Source of the DNA: Ruminococcus sp.
GTDB lineage: Bacteria; Bacillota; Clostridia; Oscillospirales; Ruminococcaceae
Direction of reading: 5' to 3'
Assembly: GCA_017437285.1 (NCBI GenBank)
Contig: JAFSBM010000127.1
Span: forward strand, 1-46,483
Length of the DNA stretch: 46,483 bases
Below are positions 7,717-33,446 of the stretch, piece after piece. The stretch's first letter is position 1, and every line of letters starts with the position of its first letter. The notes under the pieces were generated by a model. That model saw only the letters and a list, made by a program, of their open reading frames with translations. It searched no databases and had not been told where the DNA came from. The translations under genes and the position numbers were made by a program.

Positions 7717-7735
7717 TTCCGCTTTTGGAGGAAAT

Positions 7736-9169: not shown

Positions 9170-9332
9170 GGCGTGCTGACACAAAGTTGCTGCACGGATT
9201 TTCGAGCATAATTTTGCTGAGAACAAGGCAAAAATATGCAGGTGTGCTGTCGCACAGCAAATATTTTTAACGCTGTTATCGGCGAAATTTGCCGATAACT
9301 ACGGGCGAGTGACTTTTGTGTCAACACGCCCT
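9168..9332. mobile_element. 165-bp MITE-like element between murE and mraY
   Basis: The left end AGGGCGTGCTGACACAAAGT (9168-9187) and the right end ACTTTTGTGTCAACACGCCC T (9312-9332) are near-perfect inverted repeats (one substitution and one extra base). The interior carries a perfect hairpin, GTTATCGGCGAA with TTTGCCGATAAC around 9275-9299, and no coding capacity. It has the form of a non-autonomous transposable element. A target duplication could not be assigned confidently. It sits inside an essential operon without breaking a gene. Confidence 0.75.
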
Positions 9333-9352
9333 GATTAAGGAGATGTATATAA

Positions 9353-10390
9353 ATGACATTATGGTTAATAATACTGCTGACTTCCTTAGCGTCTTTCGGA
9401 ATTTCAGCATTGTCGGGAAAGTGGCTTGTACCCTTTCTCCATAAACTGAAATTCGGTCAGCCTATCAAGGTCAAGGACGGCCCCGAGTGGCACGCAAAAA
9501 AGCAGGGAACTCCCACAATGGGCGGCTTTATGTTTATTCTGTCAACGGTGCTTGCTTCAATGGGCGGTTATATGGCATACCGCATTTGGGCAGGAATTGA
9601 CTCTCTGAATATAGCCGCAACAAATCGCTTTTATATGCTTCTCAGCGTTTTGATTTTCTCACTTTTATTCGGATTTATTGGCTTTATTGACGACTACACA
9701 AAGGTTGTCCGCAAGAATAATGACGGTCTTACGGCAATTCAGAAAATTATTCTGCAAACAATTTTTTCTGTGGGATTTCTCTTTGCCCTCCACGTATTCG
9801 GCGGCGGAAGAACTTCCATAAATCTTGGTTTCTGGGAAACTCCCGACCTTGGCATATTCTACTATATACTGATGTTTGCGGTGATTATTTACCTTACAAA
9901 TGCAGTTAATCTCACCGACGGAGTTGACGGACTCTGCGGTTCCGTTACATTTACGGCAATGCTGATTTACACAGTTTGCTGTTCAATTCTTATTGAAACA
10001 GAACTCAGCTGTTTTACAATGGCACTTGCAGGAGGCTGTCTTGGATTCCTCCTCTGGAATCTCAATCCTGCAAAATGCTTCATGGGCGACACAGGCTCAA
10101 TGTTCCTCGGTGCGGCAGTAACAGCCGTGGGACTTGTGCTTCACAATCACCTGCTTATGCTTCTTGTATCTCTTGTGTATATCATTGAGGCATTATCTGT
10201 TATGATTCAGGTGACATACTTCAAGATTACAAAGAAAAAATACGGTGAGGGCAGAAGAATTTTCAAGATGACTCCAATTCACCACCACTTTGAAATGAGC
10301 AAGTGGAGCGAATACAAAATTGTTATTTCATTCTCACTTACAGGTGCATTCTTCGGAATACTGGGAATTGTTCTTGTTCTTGCATTCTGA
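9353..10390 (+). CDS. mraY: Phospho-MurNAc-pentapeptide transferase MraY
   Basis: MraY transfers phospho-MurNAc-pentapeptide to undecaprenyl phosphate to make lipid I in the membrane. The 345-residue polytopic protein carries the family signatures DDYTKV, NAVNLTDGVDGL, MGDTGSMFLG and TPIHHHFE; the Asp-rich and His-rich motifs needed for Mg2+ and catalysis are intact. The start ATG follows AAGGAG (about 9338-9343) by roughly 10 nt, and both lie immediately downstream of the MITE-like element, so the element has not removed the ribosome site. murD, which often follows mraY in Firmicutes, is missing here; ftsW comes next. Confidence 0.97.
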   Translation: MTLWLIILLTSLASFGISALSGKWLVPFLHKLKFGQPIKVKDGPEWHAKKQGTPTMGGFMFILSTVLASMGGYMAYRIWAGIDSLNIAATNRFYMLLSVLIFSLLFGFIGFIDDYTKVVRKNNDGLTAIQKIILQTIFSVGFLFALHVFGGGRTSINLGFWETPDLGIFYYILMFAVIIYLTNAVNLTDGVDGLCGSVTFTAMLIYTVCCSILIETELSCFTMALAGGCLGFLLWNLNPAKCFMGDTGSMFLGAAVTAVGLVLHNHLLMLLVSLVYIIEALSVMIQVTYFKITKKKYGEGRRIFKMTPIHHHFEMSKWSEYKIVISFSLTGAFFGILGIVLVLAF

Positions 10391-10427
10391 TTATTCCACA
10401 TTAAAACCATAATTCGGGAGGGAGCAT

Positions 10428-11684
10428 ATGTCTGCTTCGGCAAAAACAGTCACTAAAAAACGCAGGAAAAGCAAAATAGCAGCAGTTATAAAAAATCTTT
10501 TCGGCGGCGGAAGAAACGGCGATATGAGCCTTTCATTCTTTTCATATGTTATGATACTCCTGATTGTGGGGCTTGTTATGATGTCCTCCGCAAGCTATGC
10601 GTGGGCATACAGCGAGTACGGCGACGGTCTTTACTATGCAAAAAATCAGGCTATGAATGCAGGTATCGGATTTATTGCAATGATTTTCTTTATGAGGTTC
10701 GACTATCATAACTTCAAGAAAATCCAGTTGCCACTTTTCAAGAAATTCAATATTGCAGGTATATTTTACGTAGCTGTGGCAGTTCTCCTTATTGCCGTTC
10801 TTGCTATCGGTAATACCGAGGGCGGTGAAATGGGTGCTAAGCGTTGGATTGATATTGGTCCGATTAACTTGCAGCCCTCAGAAATCGCAAAGCTGGCGAT
10901 TATCGTATTTTTCGCCTACAGTATGGAAAAAGACGGTGCAAAGATGAACACTTTCAAGACGGGTATTTTAAAATATGCCGCACTTCTTGGTGTTTATGTT
11001 CTTCTCATTGCCCTTGAAAAGCACATTTCGGGTATCATTCTCATTGGTACAATTGCCATTGCTATGATTCTCTGCGGCGGTGCTAACAGGCGGCAGTTTA
11101 TTGTGCTTGGTACAATTTCATTGGCGGCAGCGGCAGGCTTTATCTTCTGGCAGTACAACACTCCCGGCAGTTACGTTCAGGCACGTATCAATGCATGGCT
11201 TCACCCATTTGAGGATATTTTAGGCGATTCATGGCAGACTGCAAACTCCCTTATCGCTATCGGTTCAGGGGGACTTTTCGGACTTGGACTCGGCAACTCA
11301 CGTCAGAAATATCTCTACCTCCCCGAAACGAAAAACGACTTCGTTTTCCCCATTGTTTGCGAGGAAATCGGCTTTGTGGGAGCGTTGGCGATTATTATTG
11401 TTTTCTTCCTCCTTGTGGTGGAGGGATATTCAATTGCTGTTCGCTGCAAGGATAGATTTGGTATGCTCCTTGCAGTTGGTATAACAACACAAATCGGTAT
11501 TCAGACAGTTCTCAATCTTGCCGTTGTAAGCAACCTCATTCCAAATACGGGAATCAGCTTGCCGTTTTTCAGCTACGGCGGAACAGCGCTTATTATGCAG
11601 CTGGTGGAAATGGGAATTATGCTGAATATTTCACAGCACAGATATTATCCTGCCGAAAAATCGGCTGAAACAAATAAGGAGTAA
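10428..11684 (+). CDS. ftsW: FtsW septal peptidoglycan glycosyltransferase (SEDS)
   Basis: A SEDS-family lipid II polymerase that partners with a class B PBP at the septum. The 418 residues begin with a basic, Lys/Arg-rich cytoplasmic tail (1-35) and continue through about ten predicted membrane helices. Family motifs include GAKRWIDIGPINLQPSE, LPETKNDFVFPIVCEE followed by IGFVG, and the final FFSYGGTALIMQLVEMG. Neighbouring PASTA PBP, FtsL and FtsQ genes support FtsW rather than RodA or SpoVE, although these cannot be fully separated by sequence. The ATG has a GGGAGGGAG site 5 nt upstream, and murG starts 2 bp after the stop. Confidence 0.94.
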   Translation: MSASAKTVTKKRRKSKIAAVIKNLFGGGRNGDMSLSFFSYVMILLIVGLVMMSSASYAWAYSEYGDGLYYAKNQAMNAGIGFIAMIFFMRFDYHNFKKIQLPLFKKFNIAGIFYVAVAVLLIAVLAIGNTEGGEMGAKRWIDIGPINLQPSEIAKLAIIVFFAYSMEKDGAKMNTFKTGILKYAALLGVYVLLIALEKHISGIILIGTIAIAMILCGGANRRQFIVLGTISLAAAAGFIFWQYNTPGSYVQARINAWLHPFEDILGDSWQTANSLIAIGSGGLFGLGLGNSRQKYLYLPETKNDFVFPIVCEEIGFVGALAIIIVFFLLVVEGYSIAVRCKDRFGMLLAVGITTQIGIQTVLNLAVVSNLIPNTGISLPFFSYGGTALIMQLVEMGIMLNISQHRYYPAEKSAETNKE

Positions 11685-19553: not shown

Positions 19554-19585
19554 GCGTGCTGATTTTTCGGCACGCTTTATTTTTT
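19554..19585 (+). terminator. Terminator after the DUF1858 gene
   Basis: GCGTGCTG (19554-19561) pairs with CGGCACGC (19568-19575; one G-U), followed by TTTATTTTTT. Confidence 0.85.
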
Positions 19586-19601
19586 GATTGGAGATAGGAA
19601 A

Positions 19602-21038
19602 ATGTTGGATAATAGACTAAAAATGTGTGCTGATATGATAAGCGGCAAGGGTATAGTATGCGACGTTGGAACTGACCATGCACTTCTTGCAGCGTATCTG
19701 ATAACAAACGGCAAATGCGAGAAAGTAATTGCCTCTGATATAAATGAAGGTCCTCTTGAATCGGCTGGGAAAACCGTTGAAAAGTACGGTATATCAGGAA
19801 AAGTTGACCTTGTGCTGTCTGATGGACTGAAAAATATCAATGGCGAGGGTGTTTCTGATATTGTCATTGCAGGTATGGGCGGTGAAACCATTGTAAAAAT
19901 TCTTAGCGAACGTCAGTTCGATCTTAATGGAATTCGTCTGATTTTACAGCCTATGACTAAGGCTGAGATTCTCAGAAAATGGCTTGCAGACTATGGATAT
20001 AAAATTGTGTCAGAAAACGGTGTTTCTGAGGGTGAAAAGCTGTATACTGTTATAACTGCTTCTGCAATGCCGGGCTGCGAATCTTTGACTGAATTTGAAG
20101 CACTTCGTGGATTTTACAGTGACGATGACGAAGTCGGCAAGATAATTCGTCAGAAAGAAGCTGAAAGATTGTTGAAAGTCAGCAAATCCTTGAAAAAAGC
20201 AGGTAAAATAAATGATGCTGTTCACTATGCGGCTATGGCAAGCCGCATGGTTAACGGAAGTAAAGATGTTCGTATAAGCGACATATATTCGTTTCTTGAC
20301 GAGAAATATCCCCTTTCATTGCAGGAAAGCTGGGATAATTCGGGTTATATAGTTGAATCTGATAGCGAAAAATGCTCAAAGATTTTACTTACATTGGATA
20401 TTACAAATGATTCTGTTGATGAAGCAATTTACAAAAAGGCTGACCTTGCTATTTCTCACCACCCTGTGATTTTCAATCCGCTGAAAAAAATACAGGTGGA
20501 TACCCCTGTTTATAAGCTTGTCAGAAGTGGAATTGGTGCAATTTGTATGCATACAAATCTTGATATAACTGAGGGCGGTACAAATACTGTCATTGTTGGG
20601 AAAATCGCTGAAAAGCTCGGTATATCGGCAAATATTGAGCCTTTGGAGGACTGTGGATTAGGCTGTATTATTGAACTTGAAAAAGTTGTTGATTGTGATG
20701 AGTTGGCTGAAATTCTCAAAGATATATTTAATATTGAGCGTGTAAAAATGAGTATGTATGGCGAATATATCTTATCAAAAATTGCGATTTGTTCAGGTTC
20801 AGGCGGCTCATTATGGAAACTTGCGAAAGCCAAAGGTTGCGATGCGTTGATAACAGGGGATGTGAAGCACGATGTGTGGATTGACGCAAATAACAGCAAA
20901 TTCACTGTTATTGACTGTGGACACTTCCACACGGAAAATCTCGTATTATGGGAACTTCGTCGTGTTCTTGAAGAAAAATTCCCAATGGTTGATGTGGAAA
21001 TTTCTGAATTGTCCGTTGACCCTTGTGAATACTATTGA
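19602..21038 (+). CDS. Fusion of tRNA m1A22 methyltransferase TrmK and Nif3-like (DUF34) protein
   Basis: Residues 1-218 match TrmK, which methylates N1 of A22 in tRNA with SAM: CDVGTDHALLAAYL (20-33), SDINEGPL (45-52), and AGMGGETI (90-97). Residues 223-478 match Nif3/YqfO, a dinuclear metal protein of poorly known function: SLQESWDNSG (239-248), SHHPVIF (285-291), MHTNLD (316-321), SGSGG and GHFHTEN near the end. The Nif3 half is the short form without the PII-like insert. In many Firmicutes trmK and nif3 are adjacent separate genes; here there is one uninterrupted frame with no stop or new start between them. ATG 19602 follows GGAGATAGG; a TTG at 19584 is less likely. The next gene starts 5 bp downstream. 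Confidence 0.92.
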   Translation: MLDNRLKMCADMISGKGIVCDVGTDHALLAAYLITNGKCEKVIASDINEGPLESAGKTVEKYGISGKVDLVLSDGLKNINGEGVSDIVIAGMGGETIVKILSERQFDLNGIRLILQPMTKAEILRKWLADYGYKIVSENGVSEGEKLYTVITASAMPGCESLTEFEALRGFYSDDDEVGKIIRQKEAERLLKVSKSLKKAGKINDAVHYAAMASRMVNGSKDVRISDIYSFLDEKYPLSLQESWDNSGYIVESDSEKCSKILLTLDITNDSVDEAIYKKADLAISHHPVIFNPLKKIQVDTPVYKLVRSGIGAICMHTNLDITEGGTNTVIVGKIAEKLGISANIEPLEDCGLGCIIELEKVVDCDELAEILKDIFNIERVKMSMYGEYILSKIAICSGSGGSLWKLAKAKGCDALITGDVKHDVWIDANNSKFTVIDCGHFHTENLVLWELRRVLEEKFPMVDVEISELSVDPCEYY

Positions 21039-21043
21039 GGTGA

Positions 21044-21874
21044 ATGATGAGTATTTTTATTTGCCCTGCATGCGGCGAAAAACTTGATATATCGGGAAAA
21101 TCCTATATATGTCCAAATCGTCATACATTTGATATGGCGAAAAGCGGCTATGTAAACCTGCTTCCTACGAATAACAGCGGAAGCGTTCACGGCGACAATA
21201 AGCTGATGCTGAGAGCAAGGCGAGAATTCCTTGAAAAAGGCTATTATAAGCCACTTTGTGATGCTGTTTGCAAAGTGGTTAGCAAATATTGCGGTGAAAA
21301 ATCTGTAATTCTCGACGCAGGGTGTGGCGAAGGCTATTATACAACTGCTGTAAAAGCAAATTTTGATAAATCAAATATTGCGGTTGAAATGTACGGAATT
21401 GACATATCAAAAGATGCGGTTGATATGGCTGCTAAGAGAAAATCGGGTGTAATTTTTGCTGCTGCAAGTGTGTTTCATATACCTGTAATGACCAATTCTT
21501 GCGATTTGCTTTTGACTATGTTTGCACCTTATTGTGGTGAGGAATATGGCAGGGTTTTGAAAAATGACGGAATTATGGTTATGGCAATTCCGTCAGAAAA
21601 TCACCTTTGGGAGTTGAAAAGTAAAATATACGACACTCCCTACAAGAATGAAGTTAAGGATTATCAGCTTGACGGATTTGAATTTGTTGGTGCTGAAAAA
21701 ATCAGGTATACTATGAATATTCCCGAAAATTCGGACATTTTAAGCCTTTTCTCAATGACTCCTTACTACTACAAAACAGGAAAAATTGAAAAGGAACGGT
21801 TAAATCAGCTGGAAAACCTCGAAACACAGGCAGATTTTGAACTTTTGATTTACAAAAAAATAGCAAAGGATTGA
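21044..21874 (+). CDS. 23S rRNA guanine-N1 methyltransferase, RlmA-like
   Basis: The 276-residue protein has the N-terminal zinc-binding module of RlmA (CPACGEKL ... YICPNRHTFD, four ligands Cys, Cys, Cys and His) followed by a SAM-dependent methyltransferase domain with DAGCGEGYYT near residue 90. RlmA proteins methylate G745 or G748 in 23S rRNA helix 35, the latter linked to macrolide response; which site is used cannot be told. The conserved KSGYVNLLP and SVHGDNKLMLRARREFL stretches are present. Two start codons are possible (ATG 21044 and ATG 21047); GAGGTG at 21037-21042, which overlaps the preceding stop, fits 21047 slightly better. Confidence 0.88.
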   Translation: MMSIFICPACGEKLDISGKSYICPNRHTFDMAKSGYVNLLPTNNSGSVHGDNKLMLRARREFLEKGYYKPLCDAVCKVVSKYCGEKSVILDAGCGEGYYTTAVKANFDKSNIAVEMYGIDISKDAVDMAAKRKSGVIFAAASVFHIPVMTNSCDLLLTMFAPYCGEEYGRVLKNDGIMVMAIPSENHLWELKSKIYDTPYKNEVKDYQLDGFEFVGAEKIRYTMNIPENSDILSLFSMTPYYYKTGKIEKERLNQLENLETQADFELLIYKKIAKD

Positions 21875-24927: not shown

Positions 24928-25419
24928 ATGATTAGAAATTTTACAAAAGAAGACGCACAGGAAGTTTCAGACCTTGTTGCGTTGACTCTCAGAACTACAA
25001 ATATAAAGGACTATTCTGCGGAACGTATTGAAGCCGATATTCTCATATTCAATGCACAGTATCTCGTCAATCGTATGAGCTGGACAAATGGCTATGTTTA
25101 CTGCGACGGTGAGAAAATCGTAGGCTGCGGTTTTATCGGGAATTTCTGGGATAAAAAGGACGAAGCCTGCCTGTTTACGTTCTTTGTTCACCCTGATTAT
25201 CAGGGAAAAGGCATCGGCAGACAGCTTATAAATGCGGTGGAAAATGACGAGTATTTCCTCAATTCTAAGCGAATTGAAATCCCTGCTTCAATTACTGCTG
25301 TTGAGTTTTACCGCAAATTCGGCTATGACTACAAAAACGGCATAACTGAGCCTGATAATGAACAGCTGGTACGGCTGGAGAAGTTCAGAAATGAAAGCAT
25401 TATCTATGGAGTAAAATAA
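24928..25419 (+). CDS. GNAT-family N-acetyltransferase
   Basis: A 163-residue acetyl-CoA-dependent acetyltransferase. Motif A is clear: FFVHPDYQGKGIGRQLI (near residues 86-102), followed by the C-terminal strand AVEFYRKFGYDYKNG. The substrate is unknown. ATG 24928 has GAGGTG 4 nt upstream. A 57-bp piece of its 3' end (25333-25389) recurs at 29747-29803, where the reading frame ends right after the shared part. The last nine residues of this copy (NESIIYGVK) are therefore not in the second copy and may be newly acquired. Confidence 0.92.
   Translation: MIRNFTKEDAQEVSDLVALTLRTTNIKDYSAERIEADILIFNAQYLVNRMSWTNGYVYCDGEKIVGCGFIGNFWDKKDEACLFTFFVHPDYQGKGIGRQLINAVENDEYFLNSKRIEIPASITAVEFYRKFGYDYKNGITEPDNEQLVRLEKFRNESIIYGVK
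25333..25389 (+). repeat. 57-bp direct repeat, left copy (3' part of the GNAT gene)
   Basis: Matches 29747-29803 with two substitutions (T/C at 25347, G/A at 25379). It bounds a block of about 4.36 kb of small accessory genes, remnants and a purine permease. Confidence 0.9.
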
Positions 25420-25420
25420 T

Positions 25421-25660
25421 ATGGCTAGAATGACTTGTTCATGTGGAGAGTTGCTCTCAAATTCGACTGTTCCTAATGATGTTGAACTTTTTGTTTACAC
25501 AGGTGAAGAATGGGACGAAATTTTAAAATATGATACTATTGAAACATGGAAAATTCCTGCTCCTAAATATGAAGTGTGGAAATGTCCAAAATGCGAAAAA
25601 ATTTACGTCTTTAAAGATGGCGATAATGAAGCTATAAAGGTATATGTTCCGGAAAAATAA
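25421..25660 (+). CDS. Small Cys-pair protein, function unknown
   Basis: The 79-residue product has a CSCG element near residues 6-9 and a CPKCEKIY element near 55-62, which together could bind one zinc ion. Between them is an acidic stretch with VYTGEEWDEIL. It starts directly after the GNAT stop with GGAGTAAAATAAT upstream, so it is probably read from the same transcript. I do not recognise a named family. Its place at the edge of a block with toxin remnants makes an immunity-type role possible, but nothing in the sequence shows this. Confidence 0.75.
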   Translation: MARMTCSCGELLSNSTVPNDVELFVYTGEEWDEILKYDTIETWKIPAPKYEVWKCPKCEKIYVFKDGDNEAIKVYVPEK

Positions 25661-25664
25661 ACAC

Positions 25665-25693
25665 TTGCAATTAAAAATGCAATATGTTATAAT
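25665..25693 (+). promoter_or_regulatory. Promoter-like site ahead of the first HINT remnant
   Basis: TTGCAA (25665-25670) and TATAAT (25688-25693) with 17-bp spacing. The -10 area (TATGTTATAATATTTATAAAG) resembles the one at 28675-28695, as if one promoter segment had been copied. It would read into the remnant and the 118-residue gene. Confidence 0.55.
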
Positions 25694-25701
25694 ATTTATA
25701 A

Positions 25702-25811
25702 AGTCAGACGGCGGAATCAGCCTGTCACGAACTTTTTGAATCACCAATCAAGGTTTATAACTTTGAGATAGAGGATTTCCATACTTATTTTGTCGGCGAC
25801 ATGATGGTAGA
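25702..25811 (+). pseudogene. Remnant of a HINT (pretoxin/intein-type) domain, copy 1
   Basis: With no start codon, the frame after the stop at 25699-25701 reads SPIKVYNFEIEDFHTYFVGD (25741-25800). This matches the C-terminal HINT-domain signature KVYNFxVEDFHTYFVG found before the cleavage site in Rhs/WapA-type polymorphic toxins. The usual VLVHN end is replaced by MMVECV. No upstream toxin body is present, so this is a fragment left by deletion or by an immunity-cassette insertion. Confidence 0.8.
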
Positions 25812-25870
25812 GTGTGTCATCTTGATCAGAGTGGTAATTTATAAGCAAAATATAAAAGGATGTGTTTTTA

Positions 25871-26227
25871 ATGGAAAAAAACAGAATTGTAATTTTTAAG
25901 GAATTTTTAAATGAATTAAGAGAAATTTATTTAAAAAATGGCGAAGACGGTTTGATGAAGGATTATGACTGGGCTGTATATTTTTCAGATGATATGATTG
26001 AAAGTGAATCATCTTGCTGCGTTGCTGATGATGTTACAGTTGATGATGATGACGAAGAAATTTATCCTGAATTTGCCATAAATAATGATATGGAATATGT
26101 TGTTTATGGTGAGATAATCTGTGATGTACTTGCAAATTGTTTTATGCAGAATTCAAATTGTGAAGTTTCAGAAATGGTCGAAGCAATTAATTATTATTTG
26201 GAATATGATAATTACATGGACTTATAA
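25871..26227 (+). CDS. Acidic orphan protein, possible immunity protein
   Basis: The 118-residue product is acidic, with a run VDDDDEEIYPEF near the middle and no signal peptide or transmembrane segment. I do not recognise the family. ATG 25871 follows AAAGGA by about 10 nt. It sits immediately downstream of a HINT-domain fragment, the position normally taken by the immunity gene of a polymorphic toxin; small acidic proteins are common in that role. The function is inferred from context only. Confidence 0.65.
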   Translation: MEKNRIVIFKEFLNELREIYLKNGEDGLMKDYDWAVYFSDDMIESESSCCVADDVTVDDDDEEIYPEFAINNDMEYVVYGEIICDVLANCFMQNSNCEVSEMVEAINYYLEYDNYMDL

Positions 26228-26288
26228 AAAAGGGAAACTCTTGAAATCTCGTCTATAGTATGGACTGCATTTCTGCCATTTGGAAGTT

Positions 26289-26520
26289 GCGGAATCAATC
26301 AGGTACGAATTTCTTAATTGCCAATCAAGGTATATATTGCTCCACCAACTAAACCTTGCCGTCAAATACTCGGCATAAAGAAAATTTCTCTGCGTCAGAA
26401 AAACTTGAAATGCGGTAGCATTCCTGCATTTTTCTTCCTTGATAAATTTCCTTTCTGCCTTCGTCTTTTTGGCAAGGTATAATTGGTGGAGCAATAACTT
26501 TGAGGCAGAGTATTGTAGTG
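26289..26520 (+). pseudogene. HINT-domain remnant, copy 2, split by a MITE
   Basis: GCGGAATCA ... CCAATCAAGGTATATA (26289-26336) and TAACTTTGAGGCAGAG (26495-26510) align with copy 1 (25711-25772) once the inserted element is removed. The joined frame reads IKVYNFEAEY, close to IKVYNFEIED in copy 1. Homology fades after about 26512, just before the ribosome site of the next gene. Confidence 0.78.
26337..26494. mobile_element. 158-bp MITE with 24-bp terminal inverted repeats and TA target duplication
   Basis: The ends TTGCTCCACCAACTAAACC.. and ..GGTATAATTGGTGGAGCAA are 24-bp inverted repeats with two mismatches. The element is flanked by TA (26335-26336 and 26495-26496). Removing it with one TA restores CAAGGTATATAACTTTGAG, the same length as CAAGGTTTATAACTTTGAG in the intact remnant, so the insertion event is directly visible. 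TA duplication suggests mobilisation by an IS630/Tc1-mariner type transposase. No transposase is encoded. Confidence 0.92.
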
Positions 26521-26529
26521 GAGGAAATT

Positions 26530-26970
26530 ATGGATAGAACATTAGATGAAGTGTTATCGGTTGCTAAAGAAATGAGTTTAACGGTGTCGGTTTTATCTTC
26601 TGCTGAGGTTGAGAAGAAAATTGAAATAATCTATGAAAAATATATTGTTAAAAATCTCAAGACCACATTTCTATGGGAAGATTTGGCAGATGCAGAGCTT
26701 ATTAATGATAGTGACGGTTGGAGTTATATTGATAGTTTTGTTGGTGAAAATCATTGTTTATTGATGTTTAAGGAATTTGATAAATGGTTTGTTGTAGAAG
26801 TGAATTCAGGAAAAGATTTGAAAATATTACTTGAGGAAACATCTTCCTTTGAATTCTATGTCTTTGATGAAATTTTATCATATATTTTATGTTTTAGTCA
26901 TCACGATCAGCTTATAGGATGCGGAAAAGCTAAAACGTGGATAAAAACATTAAAGGGCATCTCTAAATAA
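26530..26970 (+). CDS. Orphan protein, possible immunity protein
   Basis: A 146-residue soluble acidic protein. The C-terminal half has an alternating pattern of hydrophobic strands (CLLMFKEFDKWFVVEV, FEFYVFDEIL) and ends HHDQLIGCGKAKTWI, which resembles small conserved proteins found beside polymorphic toxins (perhaps the DUF6756 group; from memory and unverified). ATG 26530 has GGAGGA 4 nt upstream. It lies just downstream of the second HINT remnant, so it occupies an immunity-gene position. Function is inferred from context. Confidence 0.65.
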   Translation: MDRTLDEVLSVAKEMSLTVSVLSSAEVEKKIEIIYEKYIVKNLKTTFLWEDLADAELINDSDGWSYIDSFVGENHCLLMFKEFDKWFVVEVNSGKDLKILLEETSSFEFYVFDEILSYILCFSHHDQLIGCGKAKTWIKTLKGISK

Positions 26971-26979
26971 TACGCCCTT
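26953..26979 (+). terminator. Weak hairpin overlapping the end of the orphan gene
   Basis: AAGGGC (26953-26958) pairs with GCCCTT (26974-26979), with the stop codon in the loop, then AAAAATT. The left arm is part of a 16-bp sequence (AAAGGGCATCTCTAAA, 26952-26967) repeated at 28691-28706. Confidence 0.4.
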
Positions 26980-27068
26980 AAAAATTCCCTAACAGGTTGA
27001 TATTGCACAATTGCAGGCAGGTGAATTTGGCTATTTATCCAAATCCCTTTATATTGCATTATATTTCC

Positions 27069-27097
27069 TTGATAAATTTCCCATTTTATGATATAAT
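27069..27097 (+). promoter_or_regulatory. Promoter of the purine permease gene
   Basis: TTGATA (27069-27074) and TATAAT (27092-27097) with 17-bp spacing, about 90 bp before the ATG. The 5' leader shows no purine riboswitch consensus. Confidence 0.7.
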
Positions 27098-27185
27098 TTT
27101 TGTGTCGCTTTTTTAAAGATGTATTGTTCGGGAAAAGGTTTGCACCGAGTTCTCGGCAAATATGGGAAACAAGGAGGAGTGAACA

Positions 27186-28550
27186 ATGCTTAATCGTTTG
27201 TTCAAACTAAAAGAAAACAACACCAATGTGAAAACCGAAGTAACCGCAGGTATCACGACCTTTATGACTATGGCGTATATTCTGGCGGTAAACCCCAGTA
27301 TTCTGGGCGATGCAGGTATGAATCCAACTGCTGTACTGCTGGCAACCTGTCTTGCGTCCTTTATCGGAACAGCCTGCATGGCATTTATGGCAAATATGCC
27401 CTTTGCCCTTTCAGCAGGTATGGGACTTAATGCTTTTCTCGCATATACCGTTGTAATCGGATTTGGATATTCGTGGCAGACAGCTTTGTTTGCGGTATTT
27501 ATCGAGGGTATAATATTCATTGTCCTTTCACTTACCAATGTAAGAGAGGCAATTTTCAACGCTATTCCCTTATCCCTTAAACACGCTGTATCCGTGGGAA
27601 TAGGCTTATTTATCGCCTTTATCGGCTTGCAGAATGCCGGACTTGCTGTTGATAATTCATCGACGCTTGTTTCTATTGTAAGTTTCCGTGAAAACTTCAC
27701 AACCTCAGGTATTTGTGCATTACTGGCGGTTATCGGAACATTCCTAACGGCTATACTTTATATAAAGAATTTCAAGGGTTCAATTCTTATCGGAATCCTT
27801 GCAACGTGGATTCTCGGCATACTTTGTCAGCTTACAGGAATTTACACAGTAGATGCTGAAAACGGTTACTATTCACTTCTTCCCACTTTTGCAATAACTG
27901 ATTTTTCAAGTCTTGGTGACACTTTCGGTCAGTGCTTTAAAATAGATTTCGGCAGCGTGGGCATTTTTAACTTCATTGTTATTATTTTCTCATTCCTTTT
28001 TGTTGACTTGTTTGATACACTTGGTACTCTTATTGGAGTTGCAACAAAGGCTGATATGCTTGATAAAGAGGGCAGACTGCCGAAAATCCGTCCTGCACTT
28101 CTTGCAGATGCAATTGCAACATCATCGGGAGCTGTTCTCGGAACTTCCACTACAACTACATTTGTTGAGTCCTCAGCAGGTGTTGCAGCAGGAGGAAAAA
28201 CAGGTCTGACAGCACTTACAACAGCTATTTTATTCTTGCTGTCAATGTTTTTTGCACCTATTTTCACAGCAATTCCGTCATTTGCAACTGCTCCTGCTCT
28301 GCTTGTTGTAGGATTTCTGATGTTCAGCAATATCGCAGAACTCAAACTTACAGAGGATAACTACACATCGGCAATTCCCGCATATCTTTGTATAATTGCA
28401 ATGCCTTTGTTTTACAGTATTTCCGAGGGTATTTCCATAGGCGTAATTTCCTATGTGCTTTTTAACCTTGTTTGCGGAAAGGCTAAAAAAGTAAATCCTG
28501 TAATGTATGTACTTGCGGTACTGTTCATTCTGAAATATATTTTCTTATAA
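27186..28550 (+). CDS. NCS2-type purine permease, AzgA (adenine/hypoxanthine/guanine) group
   Basis: A 454-residue inner-membrane transporter with about 12-14 helices. The N-terminus VKTEVTAGITTFMTMAYILA and the following NPSILGDAGM and MPFALSAGMGLNAFLAY blocks are typical of the AzgA/PbuG/PbuO branch, which imports hypoxanthine, guanine or adenine by proton symport. LFDTLGTLIGVATKADM and STTTTFVESSAGVAAGGKTG, near the C-terminal third, are further family motifs. GGAGGAG is 7 nt before the ATG. It has its own promoter and terminator. It is the only recognisable metabolic gene inside the block bounded by the GNAT duplication, so it may be a passenger or an older resident. Confidence 0.93.
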   Translation: MLNRLFKLKENNTNVKTEVTAGITTFMTMAYILAVNPSILGDAGMNPTAVLLATCLASFIGTACMAFMANMPFALSAGMGLNAFLAYTVVIGFGYSWQTALFAVFIEGIIFIVLSLTNVREAIFNAIPLSLKHAVSVGIGLFIAFIGLQNAGLAVDNSSTLVSIVSFRENFTTSGICALLAVIGTFLTAILYIKNFKGSILIGILATWILGILCQLTGIYTVDAENGYYSLLPTFAITDFSSLGDTFGQCFKIDFGSVGIFNFIVIIFSFLFVDLFDTLGTLIGVATKADMLDKEGRLPKIRPALLADAIATSSGAVLGTSTTTTFVESSAGVAAGGKTGLTALTTAILFLLSMFFAPIFTAIPSFATAPALLVVGFLMFSNIAELKLTEDNYTSAIPAYLCIIAMPLFYSISEGISIGVISYVLFNLVCGKAKKVNPVMYVLAVLFILKYIFL

Positions 28551-28554
28551 TTAT

Positions 28555-28592
28555 AAAACGGCAGGGTTTCAAAATGGAAATCCTGCCGTTTT
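28555..28592 (+). terminator. Terminator after the purine permease gene
   Basis: AAAACGGCAGGGTTTC (28555-28570) pairs with GAAATCCTGCCGTTTT (28577-28592), a 16-bp stem with one G-U pair. It is A/T symmetrical and could act in both directions. Confidence 0.88.
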
Positions 28593-28609
28593 GAATTGTG
28601 GCTCGCTTA

Positions 28610-28663
28610 GTTGATTTGCCATACTCTGTGTCGGCAGTTACAGCATTTAAAAGAATTGACATA
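28610..28663 (+). repeat. 54-bp direct repeat, left copy
   Basis: Identical to 29174-29227 except one T/C. It ends with the -35 box of the next promoter. The pair brackets the 129-residue orphan gene. Confidence 0.9.
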
Positions 28664-28684
28664 TGATGTGTATTATGTTATAAT
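28656..28684 (+). promoter_or_regulatory. Consensus promoter of the 129-residue orphan gene
   Basis: Perfect TTGACA (28656-28661) and TATAAT (28679-28684) with 17-bp spacing. The -35 box is the end of the 54-bp repeat. Confidence 0.8.
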
Positions 28685-28781
28685 GTTTATAAAGGGCATC
28701 TCTAAAGTCATTACAGTAATCGAGGAAATTTACTACGCAAAATAATGGAGTTTCAATATATGTAAGAAGGAGTTGGAAATT

Positions 28782-29171
28782 ATGGGAATAAGTGTTGTTT
28801 TACCTGAAATAGAAATACATACTACACCTTTAGAAGAATTATTTATTGATAGCAATTCAATAACTATATTTTTTGATGATATTAATGAAAATAGATATAA
28901 GATTATAGCGGAACCATATCAGGCTATAAATATTACGACAATTGATTGTGTTTCATGTAAAGAATATTATAATAGTTTTTGTTATCGTGATGGTATATTT
29001 CATAGGCATATTCTTCAAGTAGAGAATTCGGAACTTTTATGTTCCTTAATAAAAAAAACAAATGAGAAACGATTTTTAATGAATTCAAAGCATTATGTTT
29101 TACCATTACAAGATATAATAATCGAATTTTTGGCATATGATTTTAAAATTGAAAAAGCAGATAACATTTAA
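28782..29171 (+). CDS. Orphan protein between 54-bp direct repeats, possible immunity protein
   Basis: A 129-residue soluble protein, AT-rich in codon use, with no recognised motif. The ATG follows AAGGAG by about 9 nt, and a perfect consensus promoter lies about 100 bp upstream. The right copy of the 54-bp repeat begins 2 bp after the stop. Promoter plus gene plus repeat therefore form a unit of about 560 bp that could have been duplicated or inserted as a cassette. Neighbouring HINT remnants suggest an immunity origin, without direct evidence. Confidence 0.65.
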   Translation: MGISVVLPEIEIHTTPLEELFIDSNSITIFFDDINENRYKIIAEPYQAINITTIDCVSCKEYYNSFCYRDGIFHRHILQVENSELLCSLIKKTNEKRFLMNSKHYVLPLQDIIIEFLAYDFKIEKADNI

Positions 29172-29173
29172 TT

Positions 29174-29227
29174 GTTGATTTGCCATACTCTGCGTCGGCA
29201 GTTACAGCATTTAAAAGAATTGACATA
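29174..29227 (+). repeat. 54-bp direct repeat, right copy
   Basis: Matches 28610-28663 with one substitution. It carries TTGACA but no -10 box at the correct distance. The rest of 29228-29324 contains a TGAGGGA/TCCCTCA hairpin (about 29242-29263) and a T-rich stretch. Confidence 0.9.
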
Positions 29228-29324
29228 AATTCGGTTCACAATTGAGGGAAGTAAAACTCCCTCACAGCTTGATTGCCGATTGTGTTCTTTTTTGAGAATA
29301 TCTTATTTTGAAAGGTGATAAGAA

Positions 29325-29657
29325 ATGAATTTTTATATTGGAAATAGTATAGGTGAAATAAAATTTGACGATTATAATATCGAGTTTTCTGACGACCTCT
29401 TACAGTATATTTATAATCAACGCAAGCAGATATCAGTTGATTTAAGTGTATTATTTGAAATTGACCCATATTCAGATACTTTTTTAGAATATGAAAATGT
29501 TAAGGCATTAAGTGATATTTGTTCTTTAATTATTGAAGCTGATATTATTAAAGGTTATAATGATTACGATGAAGGCGTTGAAATGCTTGAGGATTTACTG
29601 CAAATAGCGGATTTAGCAGTATTAAATAAAAATGGTCTGGTTATTATAGGGGATTGA
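29325..29657 (+). CDS. Small acidic orphan protein, possible immunity protein
   Basis: A 110-residue, strongly acidic protein without signal peptide, membrane segment or recognised motif. GAAAGGTGATAAG lies just before the ATG. AT-rich codon use matches the other orphans of the block rather than the division genes. A terminator hairpin follows at 29691. An immunity-type function is suggested only by position. Confidence 0.62.
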   Translation: MNFYIGNSIGEIKFDDYNIEFSDDLLQYIYNQRKQISVDLSVLFEIDPYSDTFLEYENVKALSDICSLIIEADIIKGYNDYDEGVEMLEDLLQIADLAVLNKNGLVIIGD

Positions 29658-29690
29658 AAATCTTAATAATAATATATATCATTGAGTTTT

Positions 29691-29717
29691 GCAGTCAGTC
29701 CACCTGACCGCATTTTT
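29691..29717 (+). terminator. Terminator after the 110-residue orphan gene
   Basis: GCAGTCAG (29691-29698) pairs with CTGACCGC (29704-29711) with one mismatch, followed by ATTTTT. Confidence 0.65.
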
Positions 29718-29746
29718 CTTGCACATAATCCAAGTTCAATCACAGA

Positions 29747-29806
29747 AAAAACGGCATAACCGAGCCTGATAATGAACAGCTGGTACGGCTGAAGAAGTTC
29801 AGATAG
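29747..29806 (+). pseudogene. Duplicated 3' end of the GNAT gene (right copy of the 57-bp repeat)
   Basis: The frame reads NGITEPDNEQLVRLKKFR followed by TAG (29804-29806). It matches the C-terminal part of the acetyltransferase at 24928-25419 with one residue changed (E to K). No start or body of a gene precedes it. Confidence 0.88.
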
Positions 29807-29836: not shown

Positions 29837-29865
29837 TTGACATTATACTGCATTTGTGGTATAAT
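29837..29865 (+). promoter_or_regulatory. Consensus promoter of the restriction-modification operon
   Basis: Perfect TTGACA (29837-29842) and TATAAT (29860-29865) with 17-bp spacing, 25 bp before the methyltransferase ATG. Confidence 0.82.
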
Positions 29866-29890: not shown

Positions 29891-30727
29891 ATGAAAAAGA
29901 ATAAATTAGTTGCTCCTGTTTTAAAATGGGTTGGAGGCAAAAGACAGCTTTTAGATACGTTTGCTCCGTTGTTGCCTAAAAGAATTATATCCTATTGTGA
30001 GCCATTTATTGGCGGAGGAGCTATGCTTTTTCACCTTCAACCTAAAACTGCATATGTTAATGATATAAATAGTGATTTGATTCTTGTTTATAATGTAATA
30101 AAAAATGATGTTGAGAGTCTTATTAATACATTGTCCGAATTTAAAAACGAATCGGAATTTTTTTATTCTGTCAGAGATTGGGACAGAAGTAAGAAAAAAT
30201 ATGATTCTTTGACAGATGTTGAGCGTGCAGCAAGAATTGTATATCTTAACAAAACTTGTTTCAATGGTCTTTATCGTGTGAATAATGCTGGAGAGTTCAA
30301 TAGTCCTTTCGGAAGTTATAAAAATCCTAATATTGTTAATGCCCCTGTGCTTCGTGCTGTGAGTTCATATTTTAATACAGCCGACGTTCGATTGACCTCG
30401 ACTGATTATTATGAAATATTAAAAGATATTCCTAAAGGGACTTTTGTATATCTTGATCCTCCTTATGATCCGATTTCGGATACTTCAAATTTTACTGGTT
30501 ATTCTAAAGGCGGTTTTTCAAGAGAAGAACAAATCAGATTACGTGACTGCTGTGATGAACTCACAAAGCGTGGAATAAAGTTTATGCTTTCCAATTCCTC
30601 AACTGATTTTATACGTGATTTATATTCTGATTATAACATCCAGATTGTTCAGGCTAAACGTGCTATTAATTCTAATGCAAGTAAAAGAGGAAACGTTGAT
30701 GAAGTAGTGGTGAGAAATTATGAGTAA
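29891..30727 (+). CDS. DNA adenine-N6 methyltransferase of the D12 (Dam/DpnM) class
   Basis: A SAM-dependent enzyme that methylates adenine in DNA; the closest pattern is the GATC-specific Dam/DpnM group, though target specificity is not proven by sequence. The 278 residues show KWVGGKRQ (12-19), the SAM loop EPFIGGGAM (37-45), VNDIN (56-60) and the catalytic DPPY (189-192), followed by GGFSREEQIRL (207-217). The order is alpha class. GGTGG lies about 6 nt before the ATG. It overlaps the next gene by 8 nt, the normal layout for a protecting methylase made before its nuclease. Confidence 0.93.
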   Translation: MKKNKLVAPVLKWVGGKRQLLDTFAPLLPKRIISYCEPFIGGGAMLFHLQPKTAYVNDINSDLILVYNVIKNDVESLINTLSEFKNESEFFYSVRDWDRSKKKYDSLTDVERAARIVYLNKTCFNGLYRVNNAGEFNSPFGSYKNPNIVNAPVLRAVSSYFNTADVRLTSTDYYEILKDIPKGTFVYLDPPYDPISDTSNFTGYSKGGFSREEQIRLRDCCDELTKRGIKFMLSNSSTDFIRDLYSDYNIQIVQAKRAINSNASKRGNVDEVVVRNYE

Positions 30728-32003
30728 GTCAAAAGGATTGAATGATATAGCTTGGGAACAGCTTTTTGAAAAGTATGATATTCTCAATCGAATTGATATG
30801 AGTGGAAGTTTTCAAATATCTGCAACGCAAATCAAAGAATTCAGAGAACCCCGTCTTATGGCGAAATTTGATCATATTCTTAATCTTCCAATAATATTTT
30901 CTAAGAATAAATTATCAATCCTTCCTATAACAAGAGGGGATTATGTAATTTCTCATTTTGAAGCTTATCATAAATTTGAAGAAACTGACAATAACATTAT
31001 TAAGGTAGCATTTCCTTCTTATATTCAAAGCTTGGATTATAATAATATCACAAGCGAAACTGTTGCTTTGAATTGTGCAATAGCAACAGGCATTTTGGAG
31101 GATTTTACAGGTGATGAACAAATTGTTCCAACGGTTTCTGGAAGAATGGGTTCTGGAAATTTTGATTTCATGATAAAGAATATTCAGAATGGGGAATATT
31201 GCGATGTATCAGTAAATAATTCGCAGATTGAAATTGATGCTGCATATGAGGGATTAAGGTATCTGTCGTTATTTGAAGCGAAAAGAGATTTATCTGATGA
31301 TTTTTTGGTGCGACAGATTTACTATCCATACAGAACGTGGCAGGATCGAATAGAAAAAGAAGTTAAGCCAATATTTCTAATTTATTCAAATGGAATCTTT
31401 CAATTATTTCAATATAAGTTTGAGAATCCTTATGATTACGGTTCTTTAGTTCTTGTAAAACAGTGTAATTATTCAATTGAAGATACAACTATAACAGCAG
31501 AAGATATACAAAATATCATAGGGAACTCAATTATTATTTCTGAACCAAATATACCGTTTCCACAAGCTAACTCTTTTGAAAGAGTGATAAACTTATGTGA
31601 ATTATTAAGTCAACGTGGTATGACTAAGAATAATATAACTGAAAAATATGATTTTGATTCAAGACAATCTGACTACTATACAAATGCGGCTATGTACCTT
31701 GGATTAGTTAATAAAGATGATGAAGATAAAATATATACATTAACAAAATTAGGTGAGATAACTCTTAAAAAAAGCTATAAACAGCGACAGCTTGAATTTT
31801 GTAAGCTTATTTTAAAGCATAAGGTTTTTAATACTGTTTTAAAAAGATATTTTGAAACAGGAGTTATGCCGTCTAACTGTGATATATCAATTATAATGAA
31901 AAATTCCGAATTATATAAAATAGAAAAAGATTCCACATTTGATAGGCGTGCTTCTACAGTGAAAAAGTGGATTGAATGGATTGTTGGCTTGATAAATGAA
32001 TAA
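30720..32003 (+). CDS. Probable type II restriction endonuclease paired with the methylase
   Basis: A 427-residue protein with the likely PD-(D/E)xK core EIDAAYEGLRYLSLFEAK (Asp173, Glu186, Lys188), where FEAKRDLSDDFLVRQIYYP forms the conserved strand-helix. The C-terminal third (about 285-427) looks like a winged-helix region (YTLTKLGEITLKK) and ends in RRASTVKKWIEWI. It is larger than DpnII or MboI (about 280 residues) and does not resemble them; I recall similar proteins in the DUF6996/DUF6997 restriction group, unverified. Its ATG overlaps the methylase stop (ATGAGTAA). AT-rich codon use suggests transfer. The nuclease assignment rests on the motif and on the partner gene. Confidence 0.78.
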   Translation: MSKSKGLNDIAWEQLFEKYDILNRIDMSGSFQISATQIKEFREPRLMAKFDHILNLPIIFSKNKLSILPITRGDYVISHFEAYHKFEETDNNIIKVAFPSYIQSLDYNNITSETVALNCAIATGILEDFTGDEQIVPTVSGRMGSGNFDFMIKNIQNGEYCDVSVNNSQIEIDAAYEGLRYLSLFEAKRDLSDDFLVRQIYYPYRTWQDRIEKEVKPIFLIYSNGIFQLFQYKFENPYDYGSLVLVKQCNYSIEDTTITAEDIQNIIGNSIIISEPNIPFPQANSFERVINLCELLSQRGMTKNNITEKYDFDSRQSDYYTNAAMYLGLVNKDDEDKIYTLTKLGEITLKKSYKQRQLEFCKLILKHKVFNTVLKRYFETGVMPSNCDISIIMKNSELYKIEKDSTFDRRASTVKKWIEWIVGLINE

Positions 32004-32036
32004 AAGCGTAATTTTCAGAAATTTTTCCCTCCGCTA

Positions 32037-32073: not shown

Positions 32074-32174
32074 ACCTTATCAAGAGTGGCTGAGGAAACA
32101 GGTCCTGTGAAGCCCGGCAACCTGCCGTGTATCGGCAACGGTGCCAAATCCTGCGGTATATCCGGAAGATGAGG
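32074..32174 (+). promoter_or_regulatory. SAM-I (S-box) riboswitch aptamer
   Basis: The S-box consensus is clear: CTTATCAAGAGTGGCTGAGG, then GAAGCCCGGCAACC, GGTGCCAAATCC and GATGAGG. P1 pairs CCTTATC (32074-32080) with GATGAGG (32168-32174). SAM binding should favour the downstream terminator and switch metK off. Confidence 0.97.
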
Positions 32175-32195
32175 AGCTGTGAATAAGTTCAATTC

Positions 32196-32223
32196 AGAGC
32201 GTCCTTATAAGGACGCTCTTTTT
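32196..32223 (+). terminator. Expression-platform terminator of the SAM-I riboswitch
   Basis: AGAGCGTCC (32196-32204) pairs perfectly with GGACGCTCT (32211-32219), followed by a T run to 32223. Confidence 0.92.
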
Positions 32224-32258
32224 CATCTCGGAATTAGAAATTTATGGAGGTTAAATCA

Positions 32259-33446
32259 ATGAAAAAAGTATTTTTCACATCGGAATCAGTAACAGAGGGA
32301 CATCCTGACAAAATCTGCGACCAGATTTCTGACGCAGTTCTTGACGCAATGCTTGAACAGGACGAAAATTCCCGTGTAGCCTGCGAAACTGTTGTTACAA
32401 CAGGTATGATTATGTGTATGGGCGAAATCACAACAAAGGCAAAGGTTGATATTCCTAAGATTGCAAGACAGGTTGTAAAGGAAATCGGATATGACAGAGC
32501 AAAATACGGCTTTGACTGCCACACTTGCTCAGTTCTTACAACAATTGACGAGCAGTCCCCTGACATTGCTATGGGTGTAAATGAGGCTTATGAGTACCGT
32601 GAGGAAAACGGCGAAAATGACGGTCTTTCCAATGGTGCAGGAGATCAGGGAATTATGTTCGGCTATGCCTGCAATGAAACTCCCGAGCTTATGCCTCTGC
32701 CAATTTCTCTCGCTCATAAGCTTGCATTAAAGCTTACAGATGTTCGTAAGGACGGCACTCTCCGTTATCTCCGTCCCGACGGAAAGTCACAGGTAACAGT
32801 TGAGTATCACGATGACAAGGCTGTAAGAGTTGACGCTGTTGTTGTATCTTCACAGCATTCAGCTGATATTTCCCTTGACCAGCTCCGCCGTGATATTGAG
32901 GAATACGTTATCCGTGCAGTTATTCCTGCTGAACTTATGGATGAGAATACAAAGATTTTCATTAACCCCACAGGACGTTTCGTAGTTGGCGGTCCACAGG
33001 GCGACAGCGGACTTACAGGACGCAAGATTATTGTTGATACATATGGCGGTTATTCACGTCACGGCGGCGGTGCATTCAGCGGAAAGGACCCCTCAAAGGT
33101 TGACCGTTCAGCTGCTTATGCTGCACGTTATATCGCTAAAAACGTAGTTGCAGCAGGTCTTGCTGACAAGTGCGAGATTCAGCTTTCATACGCTATCGGT
33201 GTAGCAAAGCCTATCTCCATTCTTGTTGATACATTCGGCACAGGAAAGGCTGATGAAGCTGCAATTTCCGAGGCTGTTGCAAAGACATTTGACCTCAGAC
33301 CTTCTGCAATTGTAAATATGCTTGAACTCAAAAAGCCTCAGTATCGTCAGCTTGCAGCTTACGGACATATGGGACGTGAGGATTTAGGCGTTGCATGGGA
33401 GAGAACAGATAAGGCTGAAACTCTCAGAAAAATCGTTCTCGGCTGA
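32259..33446 (+). CDS. metK: S-adenosylmethionine synthetase MetK
   Basis: MetK makes SAM from methionine and ATP in the cytoplasm. The 395-residue length is standard. Signatures include [17 protein letters not shown], the ATP/Met loop [12 protein letters not shown] and the P-loop-like [22 protein letters not shown] 32259 is chosen since GGAGG (32246-32250) is 8 nt upstream; the in-frame ATG at 32244 would lie within that site. The SAM-I riboswitch just upstream gives feedback control by the product. Confidence 0.98.

What the first reader, a model, noticed from the sequence alone, without database searches (positions are those of the whole stretch)
25333..29806. Accessory block bounded by a duplicated 3' end of the GNAT gene
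A 57-bp sequence from the 3' end of the acetyltransferase gene recurs at 29747-29803 with two differences. In the right copy the frame stops right after the shared part; in the left copy the gene continues nine codons more. Between them lie four or five AT-rich orphan genes, two HINT remnants, a MITE, a 54-bp repeat and a purine permease. This is what an insertion into a gene 3' end that rebuilds the end, or repeated capture of cassettes by recombination in the tail, would leave. No integrase is present, so homologous or illegitimate exchange is more likely than phage-type integration.
Basis: partly seen in the sequence, partly recalled or inferred. Interest (0 to 1): 0.72.

Follow-up and report, generated by a model that had tools for sequence, protein, structure and literature searches.

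The report
Immunity-gene island displacing a gene's end
In gut Ruminococcus bacteria of ruminants, a strip of probable antidote genes against rivals' toxins seems to have been pasted over the end of an ordinary enzyme gene, pushing the old gene end aside, and related bacteria carry an empty site or another version at the same spot.

Summary
Two relatives have the empty site, GNAT followed directly by metK (L180; G112). Three others carry a shorter cargo there. The right copy is most likely the displaced original GNAT end: its last codons and native spacer seem to lie at 32004-32033, split off by an inserted restriction-modification operon.

The cargo looks like orphan immunity genes of RHS-HINT polymorphic toxins. 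Homologues of three of the five orphan genes lie directly behind HINT and toxin sequence elsewhere, and one DUF7716 protein is a tested immunity protein in print. The other two are unproven.

Likely mechanism: homologous exchange within GNAT on the left, a microhomology join on the right; no recombinase was seen between GNAT and metK. Cargo genes are far more alike between species (dS 0-0.23) than five genes upstream of GNAT (0.38-1.75). Order of events and protection are inferred. A new variant of a known kind.

The parts
24928..25419 (+). GNAT acetyltransferase gene; the codons after Asn155 (25393-25419) are an acquired tail
   Evidence: Pfam Acetyltransf_7 5.8e-16; empty-site relatives end KFRNI*/KFRNV*; of 11 readable simple genus orthologue ends other than G043, 7 end EKFR*, 3 EKFREV*, 1 EKNR*
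25333..25389 (+). left copy of the 57-bp GNAT 3' end
25421..25660 (+). o79, small CxxC protein; first cargo gene, immunity role unproven
   Evidence: 96-97% identical in three syntenic relatives; seven other homologues have no toxin within 1.5 kb
25665..25693 (+). promoter-like site with TG before the -10, at the head of the first HINT relic unit
   Evidence: 10 of 12 matches; aligned in three units of own contig C91 and one of G043
25694..25803 (+). first HINT relic (C-terminal end of a pretoxin HINT domain), toxin domain missing
   Evidence: PF07591 26.5 bits at 25732-25803, below cut-off 27.7; translation ESPIKVYNFEIEDFHTYFVGD
25871..26227 (+). DUF7716 immunity-type gene
   Evidence: PF24832 9.7e-18; 36% homologue behind a HINT tail and a WHH nuclease ORF in G089; tested Salmonella immunity protein of this family
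26280..26529 (+). second HINT relic, interrupted by the MITE
   Evidence: 26292-26336 and 26494 onward align to one continuous stretch in G043, G113 and G122
26335..26496 (.). MITE with 26-nt inverted arms and a TA target duplication; absent from the three relatives' alleles
26530..26970 (+). DUF6756-like immunity-type gene, 3' end altered at a GGGCATCTCTAAA repeat
   Evidence: 23% homologue (E 7.1e-8) behind RHS-HINT-Ntox47 in G116, 52% homologue among SUKH and ankyrin genes in G113:C110; PF20541 1.4e-4, below cut-off
26955..28706 (.). segment with the permease, bounded by two direct copies of GGGCATCTCTAAA (26955-26967, 28694-28706)
27186..28550 (+). purine-type permease with flank-like base composition (GC 40%)
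   Evidence: Xan_ur_permease 9.2e-46; 94% orthologues on other contigs in G043 and G118
28610..28663 (+). 54-bp repeat copy 1; its end overlaps the -35 of the promoter-like site before o132 (28656-28684, 12 of 12 matches)
28782..29171 (+). o132, immunity-type gene
   Evidence: 61% homologue starts directly behind the stop of a RHS-HINT gene in G096
29174..29227 (+). 54-bp repeat copy 2
29325..29657 (+). o110, orphan gene, immunity role unproven
   Evidence: homologues in G043:C5 and G002:C46, neither with a toxin within 1.5 kb
29682..29756 (+). terminator element; at its end AAAAACGGCA, the microhomology with GNAT
   Evidence: stem 29694-29708 plus T run; 82% and 84% identical to two elements in own contig C91
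29747..29803 (+). right copy: displaced original GNAT 3' end, first half
29837..29865 (+). promoter-like site of the restriction-modification operon
   Evidence: 12 of 12 matches
29891..30727 (+). Dam-family adenine methyltransferase
   Evidence: PF02086 4.6e-72; TIGR00571 2.3e-93
30720..32003 (+). Type II restriction enzyme
   Evidence: PADLOC REase_II 3.2e-124; DUF6996/6997/7226
32004..32033 (+). displaced original GNAT end, second half: last codon(s), stop and native spacer to metK
   Evidence: matches the GNAT stop and spacer of empty site G112, 0 of 2000 shuffles reach the score; not significant against L180, 174 of 2000
32074..33446 (+). metK with SAM riboswitch leader; right anchor
   Evidence: RF00162 86.7 bits at 32074-32175

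Best explanation
This is an island of orphan immunity genes against RHS-HINT polymorphic toxins, sitting between a GNAT gene and metK. It was delivered by recombination that replaced the end of GNAT. Incoming DNA carrying 'GNAT end plus cargo' from another species recombined homologously within GNAT on the left. On the right it joined at a short microhomology (AAAAACRGCA) between the terminator behind the last cargo gene and the resident GNAT end. The resident's own GNAT end was thus pushed downstream, where it still leads into metK. A restriction-modification operon inserted into that end, before or after. Cargo units are remnants of toxin-immunity cassettes: promoter, HINT relic with the toxin domain gone, then the immunity gene. 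The cell would gain protection from rivals' toxins without making them. Shown: empty and variant sites, homology of three cargo genes to toxin-linked genes, low divergence of cargo between species. Well supported by one relative: the split native end. Inferred: order of events, DNA uptake route, protective function.
For: Empty sites L180 and G112; shorter cargo in G043, G113 and G122. Native end split by the restriction-modification operon: the 30 bases 32004-32033 match the G112 GNAT stop and spacer, 0 of 2000 single-base shuffles reach the score. Right junction: C91 terminators read ACAAAAACAGCA where GNAT reads ACAAAAACGGCA, 11 of 12; 6 in 200,000 random 12-mer pairs of the window do as well. 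dS of cargo between genomes is 0-0.09 (o79), 0.01-0.23 (DUF6756-like) and 0-0.17 (i129), against 0.38-1.75 for trmK, rlmA, NFACT, 3MG and AraC. Identity between several occupied genomes rises in the last part of GNAT but not against the empty sites. Toxin linkage of o132, the DUF6756-like gene and the DUF7716 gene. Own contig C91 holds the same kind of unit, two still with toxin domains.
Against: Not all GNAT pairs show the gradient: of six occupied pairs three have Fisher p below 0.05 (0.0002, 0.009, 0.014), G000-G122 0.064, G043-G122 0.19 and G000-G043 0.76; the cut point was chosen after seeing the windows and nothing was corrected for many tests. The window's own junction agrees with the C91 terminator and GNAT only over the last 10 bases, with one mismatch to C91, and the C91 elements are stand-ins for the unknown parent. 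The right copy is only 57 bp, too short to date; it is nearest to this genome's own left copy (2 differences). The spacer match to L180 is not significant (174 of 2000). The G116 homologue of the DUF6756-like protein is only 23% identical. o79 and o110 have no toxin within 1.5 kb in the homologues looked at. No GNAT-restriction operon-metK form was found. One genome per species is held, so no conspecific comparison was possible.
Confidence: 0.72

Rival explanations
1. An integrase-type genomic island inserted site-specifically into the GNAT 3' end, with the 57-bp repeat as attachment core and the integrase since lost.
For: Insertion at a gene 3' end, rebuilt on one side and displaced on the other, is the usual layout (general knowledge; repeat; empty sites).
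Against: ORF lists between GNAT and metK of the four occupied genomes show no integrase (named by Pfam or by homology to the window). Right junctions differ: a terminator joined to the GNAT end here, a terminator joined straight to the metK spacer in the three relatives. Cargo differs gene by gene. The repeat's edge lies in a microhomology.
Confidence: 0.1
2. The right copy is a simple ectopic duplication of this genome's own GNAT end, unrelated to any insertion.
For: It differs from the left copy by 2 of 57 bases, fewer than from G122 (4), G113 (4) or G043 (7).
Against: What follows the restriction operon lines up with the native GNAT stop and spacer of G112 leading into metK, which an ectopic copy would not carry; against L180 that match is not significant.
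Confidence: 0.12
3. The empty sites are secondary losses and the island is ancestral to the group.
For: Flanking-gene divergence is mosaic, so no clean species tree polarises gain and loss.
Against: Genus orthologues end at or just after EKFR or EKNR, so the longer GNAT tail is derived; cargo divergence is far below that of the genes upstream of GNAT.
Confidence: 0.06

Closest known systems
Orphan immunity gene arrays of Vibrio cholerae T6SS clusters (PMC5361080; passages read)
   Same: Immunity genes kept while effectors are displaced; homology-facilitated illegitimate recombination proposed as a possible mechanism
   Different: Those arrays lie behind the secretion cluster itself; here the array sits at a housekeeping site, GNAT-metK, and the linked toxins are of RHS-HINT type
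rAID systems of gut Bacteroidales (PMC12247911, a preprint; abstract and outline seen)
   Same: Arrays of orphan immunity genes in gut bacteria
   Different: rAID is recombinase-associated and guards against T6SS effectors; here no recombinase was seen, and the host is Ruminococcus
T7SS immunity gene strings of firmicutes (esaG, tipC; PMC9484751; abstract and outline seen)
   Same: Homologous recombination shapes immunity gene clusters in Gram-positives
   Different: Those are tandem paralogues of one family; the cargo genes here match different families or none
Salmonella Tennessee RhsA-HNHc immunity protein, DUF7716 (PMC13224477; passages read)
   Same: Same Pfam family, PF24832; its partner has a WHH triad, and so does the toxin ORF beside the G089 homologue
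   Different: There a working pair in a T6SS cluster; here the toxin part is gone
Polymorphic toxin systems with HINT domains (PMC3482391; passages read)
   Same: RHS repeats, a HINT domain before the toxin, immunity gene behind; poly-immunity loci described
   Different: The word Ruminococcus does not occur in the held part of its text; a displaced gene end was not looked for there

Membership tests
Orphan immunity array of polymorphic toxins | Cargo genes are homologous to genes that sit behind toxins | tested here: met
   Three of five orphan genes: o132 in 1 of 2 other genomes; DUF6756-like in 1 of 5 other genomes, plus a second copy in G113 among SUKH and ankyrin genes; DUF7716 in 1 of 3. 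Not met for o79 and o110
Orphan immunity array of polymorphic toxins | Cognate toxin domain missing at the locus | tested here: met
   No toxin family among Pfam matches of the five orphan ORFs; the HINT relic reads on into a short tail and a stop
Orphan immunity array of polymorphic toxins | Proteins protect against the toxin | not testable with these tools
   Published only for another DUF7716 protein
rAID system | Associated recombinase gene | tested here: not met
   None seen in ORF lists between GNAT and metK of the four occupied genomes
Integrase-type genomic island | Integrase gene at one end | tested here: not met
   As above
Integrase-type genomic island | Empty site, and a direct repeat at a gene 3' end | tested here: met
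   the three other occupied genomes lack the right repeat copy
Type II restriction-modification system | Paired methyltransferase and restriction enzyme | tested here: met
   recognition site and activity not tested
MITE with TA target duplication | Short inverted ends, many copies, TA duplicated, empty sites in relatives | tested here: met

The most novel reading that the evidence does not exclude
The GNAT-metK gap is a recombinase-free acquired-immunity locus of Gram-positive gut bacteria. Immunity cassettes travel between species on the conserved ends of the neighbouring housekeeping genes; the GNAT end serves as a portable homology arm that is rebuilt at each exchange, so the locus behaves like a mobile island without any enzyme of its own.
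Probability: 0.35. Interest if true: 0.66.

Novelty: new variant of a known kind. Interest (0 to 1): 0.52.

Why it matters
It gives one locus where the gain of orphan immunity genes can be read step by step: empty site, three-gene site, and a longer site that keeps the old gene end as a scar. It suggests how defence islands may spread between species by ordinary recombination. It links small little-known families (o132, DUF6756-like, DUF7716) to immunity against HINT toxins in Ruminococcus of ruminant guts. Rows listed by the paper searches named no work on this locus: 15 of 19, 15 of 15,128, 1 of 1, 12 of 12, 2 of 2.

Tried and rejected
Tried without result: the phage collection matched only in the permease and the plasmid collection only other GNAT genes. 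An exact GNAT-tail pattern in viral contigs gave 0. The closest restriction operon in 125 genus genomes, with at most 3 candidates scored per genome, is about 70% identical, so no donor was found. The Rfam mir-553 hit at 28545-28601 is below its gathering score (36.7 against 82 bits); I take it for the hairpin behind the permease. I first read a TTCAGAAAT match at 32014 as a target duplication around the restriction operon; alignment to G112 shows it fits native spacer better, so that idea was dropped. An origin of the extra GNAT codons from the gene upstream of o79 homologues in G088 and G091 was considered and not tested. Dropped rows: ScpA rows come from a query that I cut in the wrong frame. 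In one search, 13 of 29 GNAT loci were on the other strand and could not be read, and four more ran on into a protein of 314-319 residues. The toxin domain of the G096 protein got no Pfam or NCBIfam toxin name; I think it ParB-like from memory only.
Full report
Observation. The 57-bp repeat is present at the stated coordinates with two differences, and a search with DNA holding the right copy finds the left one at E = 1.3e-19. The 54-bp repeat, the MITE, the permease and two HINT relics are present. The five orphan genes are AT-rich (GC 24-33%), the permease is not (40%); the flanks measured are 41-42%.

Where it lies. The genome is a 4.13-Mb assembly in 235 contigs. Its nearest relatives by GNAT in genome contigs are Ruminococcus MAGs from sheep rectum, water deer cecum, goat cecum and water buffalo colon. 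In 125 genomes of the genus 66 hold a GNAT at E of 1e-40 or better; six (G000, G113, G043, G122, G118, G112) are 86% identical or more, the next 66%. In all six GNAT follows the AraC gene and leads to metK (G118 read as L180). In 16 more distant GNAT loci, fetched with 7.8-20 kb each, no metK match was found.

Empty and variant sites. In L180 GNAT ends KFRNI* and the metK promoter region begins about 15 bases later. In G112 it ends KFRNV* with a similar short spacer. G043, G113 and G122 share one arrangement: GNAT with a longer tail, o79, a HINT relic, the DUF6756-like gene, i129, a terminator, metK. The window has the DUF7716 unit and a MITE added; in place of i129 it has the permease, o132, o110, the right GNAT copy and the restriction operon. 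In this genome i129 is found in contig C91 instead.

The right copy as the old gene end. Of 29 GNAT loci printed, 13 were on the other strand and unread and four ran on into a longer protein. Of the remaining 12 one is G043; of the other 11, seven end at EKFR, three at EKFREV and one at EKNR. So the left copy's extra codons are acquired. Directly behind the restriction enzyme's stop (32003) the window reads AAGCGTAATTTTCAGAAATTTTTCCC, which lines up with the GNAT stop and spacer of G112 (AATGTGTAATTTACGGAAATTTTTCTCC); 0 of 2000 single-base shuffles of the 30 bases reach its score, while against L180 174 of 2000 do. Joined across the operon, the two parts give a native-like GNAT end one base short. 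The operon therefore most likely sits inside the displaced GNAT end.

How it got there. On the right, the last cargo terminator is fused to GNAT in AAAAACGGCA; the like terminators in C91 read AAAAACAGCA and then go their own way. C91 and GNAT agree at 11 of 12 bases there; 6 in 200,000 random pairs of 12-mers do. The window's own junction agrees with both only over the last 10 bases, with one mismatch to C91. On the left, differences fall in the last 237 of 462 GNAT bases in three of six occupied pairs at p below 0.05 (G113-G122 0.0002, G043-G113 0.009, G000-G113 0.014; the others 0.064, 0.19 and 0.76). None of eight occupied-empty pairs and not the one empty-empty pair shows this (cut chosen, no correction). 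Synonymous divergence of cargo is 0-0.23, while trmK, rlmA, NFACT, 3MG and AraC show 0.38-1.75; GNAT among occupied genomes shows 0.15-0.63 and metK 0.27-0.57. Over 17 steps of 100 bases the islands of G043, G113 and G122 are 93-100% identical in most steps, with dips to 71-92% at the start and between o79 and the HINT relic. This is what transfer between species by exchange in the flanking genes would leave. Homology on one side and a non-homologous join on the other is homology-facilitated illegitimate recombination, proposed for immunity arrays in Vibrio cholerae (PMC5361080, passages).

What the cargo is. A 61% homologue of o132 starts directly behind the stop of a RHS-HINT gene in G096, whose last domain has no Pfam name. 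A 23% homologue of the DUF6756-like protein (E 7.1e-8) follows RHS-HINT-Ntox47 in G116; a 52% homologue lies among SUKH and ankyrin genes in G113. A 36% homologue of the DUF7716 protein follows a HINT tail and a WHH/colicin-DNase ORF in G089, the two in different frames. A DUF7716 protein of Salmonella Tennessee protects against a WHH-type RhsA nuclease (PMC13224477, passages). o110 (two other genomes) and o79 (ten other genomes, three of them syntenic) have no toxin within 1.5 kb in the homologues looked at. Four aligned units (one in the window, three in C91) and the G043 unit share a promoter-like stretch with TG before the -10 and the HINT end; such matches are not proof of function. C91 has two units with toxin domains (Tse2-like and NucA/NucB by Pfam) and a SUKH gene. 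C62 has a RHS gene and, beside it, a separate ORF with RHS-core end and HINT.

Judgement. The locus is a new variant of orphan immunity arrays. Shown are the empty and variant sites and the toxin linkage of homologues of three genes; the split native end rests on one of two empty sites. The order of events, the uptake route and protection are inferred.

Noticed in passing
L063 (own contig C91) 8000-12912: A larger array of HINT-relic units in the same genome, two with toxin domains still in place (Tse2-like, NucA/NucB), a SUKH gene and several unknown orphan genes.
   Followed up: partly
L169 (own contig C62) 10962-16640: A RHS-repeat gene with a separate RHS-core-end and HINT ORF and small genes beside it, a possible expression locus of the same toxin class.
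   Followed up: partly
L170 (own contig C85) 5927-8665, minus strand: A DNA methyltransferase-like ORF of 912 aa that appears by eye to carry an in-frame HINT/intein insertion; PT-HINT match over the cut-off within it.
   Followed up: no
window 27186-28550; G043:C7, G118:C12, G011:C111: The permease is 93-94% identical in protein, but G043, G118 and G011 share almost no DNA beyond the gene in 1.0-1.5 kb flanks; in the window it lies between two GGGCATCTCTAAA copies. A gene that moves about.
   Followed up: partly
window 19584-21874 against G043 and G113: Neighbouring housekeeping genes differ widely in synonymous divergence from one relative (trmK 0.38 and rlmA 1.43 against G043; rlmA 0.41 against G113), a sign of exchange between these species.
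   Followed up: no
L175 (G089:C3) 6987-10939: Another mixed toxin and small-gene string with a WHH nuclease ORF and a DUF7716 gene.
   Followed up: no
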